Program-made: the position numbers and the translations under genes
Shown: positions 10,965 to 18,163 of the stretch, piece after piece
Numbering within the stretch: the first letter of the stretch is position 1
Layout: each line of letters starts with the position of its first letter
From: Methanoregulaceae archaeon
GTDB lineage: Bacteria > Armatimonadota > Fimbriimonadia > Fimbriimonadales > Fimbriimonadaceae
DNA length: 53,826 nt
Assembly (NCBI GenBank): GCA_020850325.1
Contig: JADZEW010000023.1
Coordinates: 1 to 53,826, forward strand
Reading direction: 5' to 3'
Notes under the pieces: model-generated
Told to the model about the DNA's origin: nothing
Seen by the model: the letters and a program-made list of their open reading frames with translations, nothing else
Databases searched by the model: none

Positions 10965-11060
10965 AGCCCCCTCCTTTCCTTGGAGAGGAGGGGGTTGGGG
11001 GTGGAGAGGCATTAGCCCCCTCCTTTCCCCCGGGAGAGGAGGGGTTGGGGGTGGAGAGGC
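10965..11060. repeat. Two tandem copies of family A inverted repeat
   Basis: Copies at 10965-11010 and 11014-11060 each read AGCCCCCTCCTTTCC, a short centre, GGAGAGGAGGGG and then TTGGGGGTGGAGAGGC. The first part is an imperfect hairpin and the trailing part is conserved but unpaired. The region is between divergent genes, and nothing else is recognisable in 10884-11098 apart from a -10 hexamer at 11088-11093. Confidence 0.8.
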
Positions 11061-11098
11061 AGTACGAACTTCTTACCCAACGAGCGTTACACTAAGAC

Positions 11099-11479
11099 AT
11101 GGCTCGTCACCTGAACAAGTCGCCCGAGGCGCGGGACCGTGCCCGGGAGCTTCGGAGCAACATGAGCACGAGCGAGAAGGTGTTCTGGGGGATGGTGCGA
11201 AAGGACGCGCTGGGCCATCGCTTTCGTCGGCAGGTACCGGTTGGACCCTATGTGCTCGATTTCTACGCCCCAAGCGCTAAGCTGTGCGTTGAGATCGACG
11301 GCGAACAACACGTGGAGCGTAGCAACCAGGACGCCGCTCGGGACCGATATCTGGCCGATCTTGGGATCGCTACGCTTCGCATTCCGTCGCTCGATCTGTT
11401 CGACTCGGATCCGCGGATGTTAACGCACTGGATGAAGGAACTTGAGCGCCTGCTCGCCGAGCGCTCGGAGCCCGCATAG
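11099..11479 (+). CDS. DUF559 domain protein (Vsr-like endonuclease fold)
   Basis: A 126-residue protein of the DUF559 family, which shares the restriction-endonuclease fold of very short patch repair nucleases. Family landmarks are SPEARDRARELRSNMSTSEK at the N-terminus, GHRFRRQVPVGPYVLDFYAP (41-60, including the conserved Asp of YVLDFY), LCVEIDGEQH (63-72, containing the acidic E-x-D and His of the active site) and RDRYLADLGIATLRIP (80-95). These fit a metal-dependent nuclease, but the biological target is unknown. TACACT lies 5 bases before the ATG, suggesting a leaderless message. Dense dispersed repeats bracket the gene on both sides. Confidence 0.88.
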   Translation: MARHLNKSPEARDRARELRSNMSTSEKVFWGMVRKDALGHRFRRQVPVGPYVLDFYAPSAKLCVEIDGEQHVERSNQDAARDRYLADLGIATLRIPSLDLFDSDPRMLTHWMKELERLLAERSEPA

Positions 11480-11485
11480 CCCTAT

Positions 11486-11780
11486 AGCCCCTTCTTTTTT
11501 GGAGAGGGGTCGGATTGGGGGTGGAGAGGTTCTATCTGCAGGATTCCTGCAATCACAAGTCTAGAACCTTACATCCATCGGACTCTCCCTCCCTAGCCCT
11601 CCCTCTCACCGGAGCGAAAGGGAGGGAACCGGAAAGCCCCCTCCTTTCTCCGGAGAGGAGGGGGTTGGGGGTGGAGAGGATCATGATCTCTAGAATATAG
11701 ATTCTGCAATCTAGAATCCAAAATCCCAAGGACTCTCCCTCCCTAGCCCTCCCTCTCATCGGAATGAAAGGGAGGGGAAC
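11486..11780. repeat. Nested array of dispersed repeats (families A and B plus a TCTAGA-rich element)
   Basis: This gene-free stretch alternates two families. Family A copies are at 11486-11530 and 11635-11679. Family B copies, starting GGACTCTCCCTCCCTAGCCC and ending in AAAGGGAGGG, are at 11580-11628 and 11730-11777. Between them lie AT-rich segments with repeated TCTAGAATC and ATTCTGCAATC words (11531-11579 and 11680-11729). No convincing coding frame crosses it. The nesting suggests repeated insertion at a tolerant site. Confidence 0.8.
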
Positions 11781-12013: not shown

Positions 12014-13717
12014 TCAGCGGATCTCTTGCTCAAATGACTCACTGAGTACAGACGCCAGTTCGTTGAATACATCTTCGAATGCCTCATCTAACAAGGTGTC
12101 TGATAAGGATGTGACAACGTAGTCTTTCCAATCAAGGCTCATTCGGATCGTGTACTCGCCTATAGGATCATGGTTGACTATGGCATCGAAGCAATCTACA
12201 AAGCGGCGTCCGGATGCAACCAGCGTGCAAATCTGCTCCCACTCGCGCAAGCTGGCAACAAATGGCCTTACAAAGTGCTTGCTCTTTAGCTCTTCGACAT
12301 CCTTAAAGAGCTTCCTGAACTTTTCATTGAATGCCTGCTGAACGTACATGAAAGCAAACGCATCATCCAGTACTATGACTCCAAGATGCAGGCGAGTGAG
12401 ATTCTTGTTCTCCACTACTAAAGACTTGAATGACTTGGCAAGTTGATCATGAGCTTTCGTGAATACTTTACTTGACATGATCATGTTCGAAAAGATTAGA
12501 GAGGTATCTGCCGTTAAGTAGTCTGCTTTTAGTGAATCTGCTTTTACTTCTAACGCAGCTAGTACTAGATTGTCTTGAATTCGAAAATCATGTCCGGGAT
12601 GGTTCTCTTTAGTGGCAGTTACCACCGACCCGCTCTTAGAGTGCTTCGCAGCAGCATCAGCAATGTCGCGAGCGTAGGCTTCCAAAGCGAGTCCAAGGTA
12701 CTCTCGAAAGTGCTGTCGTTCATCATGATGAAGGGAATCGGCGATCAGATCAAAGATCCCGCTTCCGAGAAAGCACGCAAGAGACGTAAAGTCGAGGATA
12801 ATGTGATCGTCAGACAGCTGCAACAGTGGTTTCTTGTCAATACATGTCAGGAATCGATGAGAGCCCTGAGAGAACTCCCATGCAAGTTGATCCAGTGACG
12901 TGGTCAATGCGTTCAACGTACGATCAACTCTAACCTCATCCCATCTGAAATTCTTGAAGAAAACACTTCTTGATAGGCCAGGTTGCGTCTTCAAGGTGAG
13001 ACCAGATTGTTGATAGTTCGCGAGAAGGACCGAAGCCGCTAGACGCCAGAGGTCCTGGGGTTCACACTGCAAGCGATCGTAACAACTGGCTGCTAGGGCA
13101 TCAATGGTCCTGCCATCGCGCTGGTATTCCTTTGGTAAATAATGAAACAGGAGTCGGTGACCTCGTATGAGTTCAGTATCTGCAGATATCGGTTGATCAG
13201 ACTTAGCAGTCCTAAGCAGTTGCACTGCAATCCGTGATTCATGTTGAAAAGGATTTATGTTTCGTGCTGTGGTTGCTGCCGTGGCGCGTTTGGTAGAAGT
13301 ATCTCCGAGAAAGCTCGATACATGTAGTAATAACTCTCCGAACTCAAAGCGGTCTGCCGGGTCCAAGAGCGAACGGGTTGCGTCTTGATGGGTGCGGTCG
13401 CCGTAGGTTGCCAGAAGCAGATATGTTAGGTGTAGTTGTCGACGGCTGATGAAGACCCAAGACTCTGACTTGAGATCAATACTGCTTTTCTGGAGTAGTT
13501 CCGGGGCGAGGAACTGACTTAGTGCCCACTGCTGATCGCTATGCCAGCGTCTCCCGTTGGTCAATGCGCATGCAACTCTAGCTAAAGGACGCAAGGTCTC
13601 TTCGGCCCGAAAGCGCTTGACGCGGTCTGTAAGTTCCGCTAACGAGAGTGGTTGTAAGGCGAAGCAGGAGGCGTCCAGATGGATGAGAGTTCTAGGCGCG
13701 TTAGGTGGCGGACGCAT
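12014..13717 (-). CDS. Orphan protein with PD-(D/E)XK-like nuclease signature; candidate acquired defence gene
   Basis: A 567-residue protein I cannot assign to a named family. Residues 338-350 (REYLGLALEAYAR) resemble the helix that precedes the core in many restriction-fold nucleases. HDFRIQDNLVLAALEVKAD (376-394) then gives Asp377 or Asp382, Glu390 and Lys392 in D...E-x-K spacing. AHDQLAKSFKSL (422-433) matches the usual following helix with a conserved Gln, and HLGVIVLDDAF (444-454) looks like the next core strand. The N-terminal 330 residues are helical and unassigned. Most of the gene is visibly richer in A+T and in rare codons (TTA, AGA, ATA) than its neighbours, a sign of transfer. 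There is no Shine-Dalgarno site; the start lies 10 bases after an nrdJ tail remnant. Nuclease activity is inferred. Confidence 0.7.
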   Translation of the reverse strand: MRPPPNAPRTLIHLDASCFALQPLSLAELTDRVKRFRAEETLRPLARVACALTNGRRWHSDQQWALSQFLAPELLQKSSIDLKSESWVFISRRQLHLTYLLLATYGDRTHQDATRSLLDPADRFEFGELLLHVSSFLGDTSTKRATAATTARNINPFQHESRIAVQLLRTAKSDQPISADTELIRGHRLLFHYLPKEYQRDGRTIDALAASCYDRLQCEPQDLWRLAASVLLANYQQSGLTLKTQPGLSRSVFFKNFRWDEVRVDRTLNALTTSLDQLAWEFSQGSHRFLTCIDKKPLLQLSDDHIILDFTSLACFLGSGIFDLIADSLHHDERQHFREYLGLALEAYARDIADAAAKHSKSGSVVTATKENHPGHDFRIQDNLVLAALEVKADSLKADYLTADTSLIFSNMIMSSKVFTKAHDQLAKSFKSLVVENKNLTRLHLGVIVLDDAFAFMYVQQAFNEKFRKLFKDVEELKSKHFVRPFVASLREWEQICTLVASGRRFVDCFDAIVNHDPIGEYTIRMSLDWKDYVVTSLSDTLLDEAFEDVFNELASVLSESFEQEIR

Positions 13718-13727
13718 AGTGGTGGGT

Positions 13728-13784
13728 CTAGCTACATCCGTTCGTCTCGCCGCAGCTGTCGCGCTTCAGACAGACGCCGTTTCG
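13728..13784 (-). pseudogene. Displaced, diverged remnant of the nrdJ 3' end
   Basis: On the minus strand these 57 bases encode RNGVCLKRDSCGETNGCS and a TAG stop. The intact nrdJ 677 bases away ends [18 protein letters not shown] and TAG. The two differ mostly at silent positions, plus Cys to Arg and Ser to Asn, and similarity stops abruptly upstream. The pattern suggests descent from an nrdJ of a related lineage rather than a recent local copy. The orphan nuclease-like gene begins directly after it. The rest of 13785-13855 shows no gene. Confidence 0.8.
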
Positions 13785-13855: not shown

Positions 13856-14338
13856 TCATTTCCCCTTCGCCGCCTCCCGCTCCATCAGCAACTTCGCCGT
13901 GTAGCCGCCGCGCATGTTGCCAGCGTCGTCCATGATGATCCAGTCCTCGACCGCATCTTGCTTCACCTGGACCGCGTCGCCAAGCTTCAGGTTCTTGGCG
14001 TAGATCGGGTCGTTGCCGAGGGTGCCAAAGAAGACCCCTTGCTCAAACTTCTCAACGTCCACCCACATATGCTCCGCCGAGTCGTTTGCGGGGAAGGATG
14101 TCTTGATGGAGAAGGTGACTTGGCCGGTGGTCTTCGCTTGCTGCTGCTGCAGTTCGCTGATGAACTCCGGCAGGGAAGCCCGCGCCTTCGCTTCGGCCGC
14201 GGCCAACTCGGGATCGTTGTCCTCCACCGCGCTCACCGGCGGCTCGCCGTCACGGTAAAGGCTCCCTTCTGGTCCGCTCTTCGTCGAGGAACAGGAGATA
14301 CAGAAGACGAGAACGCAGAGGAAGGCAAGGTTGCGCAT
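13856..14338 (-). CDS. DUF2314 lipoprotein
   Basis: A protein of about 160 residues with a lipoprotein signal peptide (MRNLAFLCVLVFCISC, lipobox ISC) when started at 14338. A longer frame to 14389 adds residues that do not look like a signal. The C-terminal part carries the DUF2314 pattern: AEHMWVDVEKFEQGVFFGTLGN-type strands, then LGDAVQVKQDAVEDWIIMDD and GGYTAKLL. DUF2314 proteins (YegJ type) have no known biochemical role. The gene sits exactly between intact nrdJ and the displaced nrdJ tail remnant, so it is the cargo of that duplication. It is 67 bases downstream of nrdJ on the same strand. Confidence 0.85.
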   Translation of the reverse strand: MRNLAFLCVLVFCISCSSTKSGPEGSLYRDGEPPVSAVEDNDPELAAAEAKARASLPEFISELQQQQAKTTGQVTFSIKTSFPANDSAEHMWVDVEKFEQGVFFGTLGNDPIYAKNLKLGDAVQVKQDAVEDWIIMDDAGNMRGGYTAKLLMEREAAKGK

Positions 14339-14404
14339 CATGTCTCTTAAGTAGCGCGAACGACCCGTGGATTCCTGCAGCACCTGCAATCTTCTCCAAC
14401 GAAA

Positions 14405-18163
<3,759 letters not shown>

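What the first reader, a model, noticed from the sequence alone, without database searches (positions are those of the whole stretch)
12014..13717. Orphan, AT-richer gene with a PD-(D/E)XK-like nuclease signature in an accessory island
Seen: residues 376-394 give D..., E390-x-K392; a preceding REYLGLALEAYAR helix and a following AHDQLAKSF helix fit the restriction-endonuclease fold. Codon use (TTA, AGA, ATA) differs from neighbours. It sits beside a DUF559 nuclease, a truncated gene, dense repeats and a displaced nrdJ tail. Inference: a horizontally acquired nuclease, possibly a single-gene defence or restriction factor not described before. The 330-residue N-terminal half has no family I recognise.
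Basis: partly seen in the sequence, partly recalled or inferred. Interest (0 to 1): 0.72.

Follow-up and report, generated by a model that had tools for sequence, protein, structure and literature searches.

The report
Undescribed nuclease parked behind nrdJ
A foreign-looking gene behind an essential DNA-building-block gene in an Armatimonadota bacterium encodes a member of a previously unnamed nuclease family whose relatives sit among anti-virus genes on plasmids, phages and phage satellites, so it is probably a virus-defence gene in a spot where such genes collect.

Summary
Window 12014-13717 (minus strand) is an intact 567-aa gene (GC3 0.49 against 0.87 in nrdJ) with no Pfam, NCBIfam, PADLOC or PHROGs family. 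I linked it to about ten distinct relatives. In eight aligned sequences, E346, D377, E390 and Q425 are invariant and K392 is kept in seven. A phage relative passes Pfam's NERD cut-off, so a PD-(D/E)XK nuclease core is well supported. AlphaFold with 2-4 sequences failed (pLDDT 36-40), so the fold is not shown structurally. Relatives occur beside TrlF/Abi/GASH genes on a Klebsiella plasmid, in a P4-like satellite that also carries an AriA/PtuA-like ATPase, in SPbeta-type phages, and beside CBASS-like genes in another Armatimonadota genome. The nearest relative also lies directly behind nrdJ. In this family the nrdJ 3' end often carries different AT-rich same-strand genes (TIR, Mrr, reverse transcriptase, Dsr1-like), some within 4-25 nt. 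The 'displaced nrdJ tail' is a real 56-nt second copy; the only other of 61 loci with one also has two stacked inserts. Best reading: a probable infection-triggered single-gene defence nuclease at a family-specific nrdJ insertion spot. Activity and defence are inferred; the hotspot statistics are modest.

The parts
12014..13717 (-). Gene for the candidate nuclease, 567 aa (P0001)
   Evidence: Open frame; AT-rich, GC3 0.49; homologues
12866..13717 (-). N-terminal region, residues 1-284, no known family; proposed sensing part
   Evidence: No family hit; part of it aligns across the profile comparison, columns 87-519
12173..12865 (-). C-terminal region, residues 285-515, PD-(D/E)XK-type core
   Evidence: Invariant P297, G342, E346, Y348, D377, E390, Q425 in eight sequences; NERD hit in the phage homologue
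12680..12682 (-). E346, helix glutamate preceding the core
   Evidence: Invariant
12587..12589 (-). D377, catalytic aspartate candidate
   Evidence: Invariant
12548..12550 (-). E390, catalytic glutamate candidate of E-x-K
   Evidence: Invariant
12542..12544 (-). K392, catalytic lysine candidate
   Evidence: K in seven of eight; T in the G007 homologue
12443..12445 (-). Q425, conserved glutamine after the core
   Evidence: Invariant
13728..13783 (-). Second, decayed copy of the nrdJ 3' tail, ending 10 nt before the nuclease start codon
   Evidence: 86% over 56 nt to 14405-14460; score 72 against control maximum 34
13856..14389 (-). DUF2314 lipoprotein-like gene between nrdJ and the tail copy (second insert)
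   Evidence: Pfam PF10077 3.3e-23
14405..18163 (-). nrdJ, class II B12-dependent ribonucleotide reductase, intact
   Evidence: Pfam Ribonuc_red_lgC 2.7e-128; ends [11 protein letters not shown]
14405..14460 (-). True nrdJ 3' tail, the spot behind which accessory genes collect in this family

Best explanation
The gene encodes a single-protein anti-phage nuclease with a NERD-like PD-(D/E)XK core at its C-terminus (about residues 285-515: E346, D377, E390, K392, Q425) behind a roughly 280-residue N-terminal region of no known family. It was acquired horizontally and sits in a spot at the 3' end of nrdJ where Fimbriimonas-type Armatimonadota collect accessory, often defence-type, genes. Proposed working: before the DUF2314 insert arrived, the gene followed the nrdJ stop by about ten bases and so was probably transcribed from nrdJ; the N-terminal region recognises a sign of infection and releases the nuclease, which cuts phage DNA or all DNA in the cell. 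Shown by sequence: the family, the motif, foreign composition, the nrdJ position in two genomes, and defence neighbours of relatives. Inferred: catalysis, trigger, target, protection, and expression from nrdJ.
For: Eight-sequence alignment: E346, D377, E390, Q425 invariant, K392 in seven. Three further relatives found by profile, E 3.8e-24, 1.0e-14 and 6.3e-4, read as E-[FC]-K. The SPbetaL4 relative matches Pfam NERD above the curated cut-off, 25.6 against 22.1 bits. Profile-profile link of the Armatimonadota pair to the plasmid/phage group: probability 91.9, E 7e-7, columns 87-519. Best PDB profile hit, weak (E 0.42) but in register, is the nuclease Can2. Contexts: TrlF, Abi (PADLOC PD-T4-5 4e-24) and GASH on a K. 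pneumoniae conjugative plasmid; P4-like satellite with AriA/PtuA-like ATPase; SPbetaL4/L6/L7; Cap2-like, CapV-like and JAB proteins beside the G139 relative. nrdJ spot: G007 relative 5 bp after the nrdJ stop, and TIR_2, Mrr/type IV, RT-UG/Drt8-like, Dsr1-like, nSTAND1, Fic and PIN_8 genes behind nrdJ in other genomes.
Against: No activity data. Structure prediction failed twice. The closest relative lacks the lysine (EVT). PADLOC does not know the family. Some relatives have uninformative neighbours (G136, G127, Paenibacillus plasmid). The nrdJ spot also holds non-defence genes (GNAT in G008, DUF2314 here).
Confidence: 0.68

Rival explanations
1. It is a modification-dependent (type IV-like) restriction endonuclease: the N-terminal region reads modified bases on incoming DNA and the C-terminal core cuts.
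For: No methyltransferase recognised among the ORFs around it, as for type IV enzymes. A true Mrr-type enzyme occupies the same nrdJ spot in G113 (PADLOC mREase_IV 2.6e-85).
Against: No match to Mrr, McrBC or other restriction models. No recognisable base-reading domain.
Confidence: 0.2
2. It is a selfish or counter-defence nuclease of mobile elements (toxin, competitor exclusion or plasmid stabiliser) rather than host defence.
For: Many relatives ride on plasmids, phages and a satellite.
Against: In the window and G007 it sits alone in the chromosome behind nrdJ with no recognised mobile-element core. Exclusion of rival phages by a prophage would itself be defence.
Confidence: 0.15
3. It is an ordinary DNA-processing or repair enzyme that happens to lie next to nrdJ.
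For: Two genomes of the family share the nrdJ neighbourhood.
Against: Only six of 291 phylum genomes carry it. 23% identity between two genomes whose NrdJ is 72% identical. Foreign composition, and relatives in other phyla on mobile DNA.
Confidence: 0.05
4. It is a decaying remnant without function.
For: The upstream tail copy is decayed and a DUF2314 gene now separates the gene from nrdJ.
Against: Full-length open frame of 567 aa with all catalytic candidates intact.
Confidence: 0.06

Closest known systems
Pfam NERD (PF08378), nuclease-related domain of the PD-(D/E)XK superfamily
   Same: The SPbetaL4 relative passes the NERD cut-off and the E...D...E-x-K...Q pattern fits
   Different: P0001 itself gives no NERD hit, and the long N-terminal region is not a described NERD partner that I could identify
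Can2 / Card1 CRISPR ancillary nucleases
   Same: Weak profile match (E 0.42) in the register of the nuclease core
   Different: No CARF domain detected (no Pfam hit) and no CRISPR locus noticed in the stretch read; different N-terminal region
Type IV methyl-directed restriction enzymes (Mrr)
   Same: Single gene, PD-(D/E)XK core, no methyltransferase seen; a Mrr gene occupies the same nrdJ spot in G113
   Different: No Mrr_N or Mrr_cat match for P0001
P2/P4 defence hotspots (Rousset et al. 2022, PMC9122126)
   Same: One relative (91% to the Klebsiella one) lies in a P4-like satellite with an AriA/PtuA-like ATPase
   Different: The window copy sits at nrdJ in the chromosome and is not in a satellite
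Core-gene-bounded defence hotspots (e.g. P. aeruginosa, PMC10250203) and gene-3'-end insertion sites such as SCC at rlmH (the latter from memory)
   Same: Variable defence-type genes next to a conserved gene; tail of the target gene duplicated
   Different: No integrase recognised and no flanking repeat found for single inserts; a tail copy was seen only where two inserts are stacked

Membership tests
PD-(D/E)XK nuclease superfamily | Conserved E / D / E-x-K / Q residues | tested here: met
   Eight-sequence alignment; K replaced by T in one member
PD-(D/E)XK nuclease superfamily | Alpha-beta-beta-beta-alpha-beta fold | tested here: inconclusive
   AlphaFold pLDDT 36 and 40
PD-(D/E)XK nuclease superfamily | Metal-dependent DNA cleavage | not testable with these tools
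   Needs a purified protein
NERD (PF08378) | Match above the family's gathering score | tested here: not met
   P0001 no hit; met only by the SPbetaL4 relative
Mrr type IV restriction enzymes | Mrr_cat / Mrr_N match | tested here: not met
Known PADLOC defence families | Match to a PADLOC model | tested here: not met
   Klebsiella and Paenibacillus relatives none better than E 0.027
Classical restriction-modification system | Cognate methyltransferase beside the nuclease | tested here: not met
   No methyltransferase recognised by eye among ORFs at 5-22 kb
Site-specific integrative element at a gene 3' end | Flanking direct repeats and an integrase | tested here: inconclusive
   Tail copy in window and G132 only, none behind single inserts; no integrase recognised by eye among window ORFs at 5-22 kb, no model search made

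The most novel reading that the evidence does not exclude
The 3' end of nrdJ in Fimbriimonadaceae-type Armatimonadota is a docking site for promoterless defence genes. An incoming gene arrives with its own copy of the nrdJ tail, so nrdJ stays intact, the new gene lands a few bases behind the stop and is driven by the nrdJ promoter, and older inserts are pushed down as a stack marked by decayed tail copies. P0001 would be the older insert of such a stack and the founder of an undescribed defence nuclease family.
Probability: 0.45. Interest if true: 0.68.

Novelty: new variant of a known kind. Interest (0 to 1): 0.52.

Why it matters
It adds a candidate single-gene defence nuclease family, absent from the defence library used here, that is spread over at least three phyla, plasmids, phages and a P4-like satellite and can be tested directly in E. 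coli and B. subtilis. It also points to an essential-gene 3' end as a collecting point for defence genes in a phylum in which I found no paper on defence islands, a place to look for more unknown systems.

Tried and rejected
Pfam, NCBIfam, PADLOC and PHROGs gave no family for P0001. tblastn of P0001 against plasmids and phages and two viral-contig scans were empty; the link came stepwise through the G007, Paenibacillus and Klebsiella proteins. A PDB search with A2 gave only a chance-level DptG hit. AlphaFold on the whole protein (2 sequences) and on residues 283-530 (4 sequences) failed, so no fold search was made. Idea that the nrdJ flank is more variable than other flanks: rejected, since same-genus pairs sharing a downstream ORF were 6/130 for nrdJ and 4/49 for thyX. 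Idea that tail repeats flank every insert: rejected, only two of 61 loci. Idea that the spot exists in all Armatimonadota: not supported, 16 nrdJ loci of other families show no AT-rich adjacent ORF. REP-type transposases as movers: not pursued; by eye one lies near nrdJ in G114 and others about 3 kb away in G007 and G127, and my motif count was not reliable. One search with a transposase family was uninformative. The nrdJ and SPbetaL4 literature searches found nothing on this.

Full report
OBSERVATION. The ORF at 12014-13717 (-) is intact, 567 aa and single-copy in the genome. It is AT-richer than its surroundings; GC3 is 0.49 against 0.87 for nrdJ and 0.82-0.84 for other neighbours, with TTA 1.9% against 0.2%, AGA 1.1% against 0.1% and ATA 1.1% against 0.2% in nrdJ. 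The 'displaced nrdJ tail' is real: 13728-13783 matches the true nrdJ end 14405-14460 at 86% over 56 nt, far above controls (72 against a maximum of 34). nrdJ itself is intact, and a DUF2314 lipoprotein-like gene lies between it and the tail copy.

FAMILY. P0001 has no Pfam, NCBIfam, PADLOC or PHROGs family. In 291 genomes of the phylum a single-sequence search found one relative, G007 (E 1e-18), which is contig MKRX01000002.1, Armatimonadetes bacterium 55-13. From there the family opened stepwise: G136 (weak, E 0.00125; hhalign 89%, E 2e-6), a Paenibacillus amylolyticus plasmid protein (E 0.02), a Klebsiella pneumoniae conjugative plasmid protein (E 6e-20 from the Paenibacillus one), Bacillus phages SPbetaL4/L6/L7 (E 3e-13 from the Klebsiella one), and two IMG/VR contigs. 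The weak Paenibacillus step is backed by a profile-profile comparison of the two Armatimonadota sequences with the three plasmid/phage sequences: probability 91.9, E 7e-7, over columns 87-519. A profile of eight sequences then found three more Armatimonadota members, G127 3.8e-24, G228 1.0e-14 and G139 6.3e-4.

ACTIVE SITE. In the eight-sequence alignment the invariant columns are R185, P297, G342, E346, Y348, D377, E390 and Q425. K392 is K in seven and T in G007. The pattern KP[LF]L...YLP...FG..FE.Y...SPD...EVK..R...P..Q in the plasmid/phage group is a textbook PD-(D/E)XK layout. The SPbetaL4 relative matches Pfam NERD above its cut-off (25.6 against 22.1 bits, E 1.9e-5); the Paenibacillus one gives E 0.0017 and the IMG/VR one E 5.4e-4, both below cut-off. 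The best PDB profile hit, not significant at E 0.42, is Can2, aligned in the nuclease register. Two AlphaFold runs failed (pLDDT 36 and 40), so the fold rests on sequence alone.

CONTEXT OF RELATIVES. The Klebsiella gene lies beside a TrlF-family ATPase, an Abi protein (PADLOC PD-T4-5 4e-24) and a GASH system. A 91% identical gene lies in a P4-like satellite: the contig matches E. coli P4-type elements with primase-helicase and polarity suppression genes, and its other end carries an ATPase matching AriA (1.2e-6) and PtuA, next to an HNH-like protein recognised by eye. The G139 gene lies beside a JAB protein, a Cap2-like protein (PDB 7tsq, 4e-6) and a CapV-like patatin (PDB 8zr9, 3e-22), that is a CBASS type II-like set. 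G136, G127, G228 and the Paenibacillus plasmid are not informative; G228 has a nucleotidyltransferase-like ORF next door.

THE nrdJ SPOT. The G007 relative starts 5 bp after the nrdJ stop. The two proteins share 23% identity while the two NrdJ share 72%, which suggests separate arrivals at one place rather than vertical descent. I therefore read behind nrdJ in the family. Different same-strand ORFs start 4-25 nt after the stop in many genomes, commonly AT-richer than nrdJ: a TIR_2 protein in G023 (2e-18), a type IV enzyme Mrr in G113 (behind a short ORF; PADLOC 2.6e-85), an RT-UG/Drt8-like reverse transcriptase in G115 (5.6e-19), a Dsr1-like protein in G150 (7e-32, second ORF), an unknown protein followed by an nSTAND1 ATPase in G013, Fic in G132 and GNAT in G008; further off, PIN_8 at +99 in G110. 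Four genomes not used in forming the idea gave one more case, G127, with an AT-rich 339-aa ORF at +6 (GC 0.42 against 0.60).

CONTROLS. AT-rich same-strand ORFs within 30 nt: 8/56 for nrdJ against 0/30 for thyX (P = 0.046). GC drop of 0.08 or more in the first 800 nt: 19/56 against 3/30 (P = 0.019). With the four new genomes, and with 16 nrdJ loci of other Armatimonadota families added to the control, 9/60 against 0/46 (P = 0.005). PADLOC on 15 thyX-adjacent ORFs gave one strong hit (PDC-S01) and three weaker PycC hits, so PADLOC hits alone do not separate the two flanks cleanly. Same-genus gene turnover is not higher at nrdJ than at thyX. The idea arose from most of the same data, so these P values are descriptive.

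TAIL COPIES. Only the window and G132 carry a second nrdJ tail within 10 kb, and both have two inserts in a row with the copy just before the second. Inference: a new insert comes in with donor nrdJ tail sequence and pushes the older tail and insert downstream. Homologous recombination in nrdJ on one side with an illegitimate join on the other would do this; such events are discussed in the natural-transformation literature (e.g. the papers listed, not read in full). A site-specific recombinase is not excluded. The P0001 start codon lies 10 nt after the tail copy, as expected if the gene once sat directly behind nrdJ.

VERDICT. Function is inferred. The insertion spot behind nrdJ is the more novel lead but has modest statistics. 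I found no paper describing either, within an open-access library only.

Noticed in passing
L172:3267-8986 (G139): A P0001-family gene sits next to a CBASS type II-like set (JAB, Cap2-like E1/E2, CapV-like patatin); the cyclase was not looked for.
   Followed up: partly
L054:536-2095 (G115): Reverse transcriptase of the RT-UG/Drt8 neighbourhood starting 11 nt behind nrdJ; best PADLOC RT_UG21 5.6e-19, possibly a new DRT type.
   Followed up: partly
L069:584-3989 (G150): 208-aa ORF plus 935-aa protein with Dsr1-like C-terminal similarity (PADLOC 7e-32), possibly a two-gene Dsr1 variant behind nrdJ.
   Followed up: partly
L168 (G127), 6 nt behind nrdJ: AT-rich 339-aa ORF beginning MKSVFVLMPFEESSKW, by eye like the TIR-like / nucleoside deoxyribosyltransferase-like class; no PDB hit.
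   Followed up: partly
window 10965-11776: Palindromic G/C-rich repeats with the unit GGGTTGGGGGTGGAGAGG; 20 exact 17-mers across the genome.
   Followed up: partly
window about 14560-14700: Near its C-terminus NrdJ reads [22 protein letters not shown], which looks like a similar repeat inserted in frame into the nrdJ coding sequence.
   Followed up: no
   Followed up: no
L061 and L062 (G017): Two extra ORFs ending in an NrdJ-like zinc tail (...SSTGCS / ...SSKGCS), each followed by a similar 531-aa gene: short NrdJ-tail proteins elsewhere in that genome.
   Followed up: no
L143 (G127) and L006 (G136): A subgroup of the family has a C-terminal C-x2-C...C-x2-C zinc-ribbon-like extension not present in P0001.
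   Followed up: no
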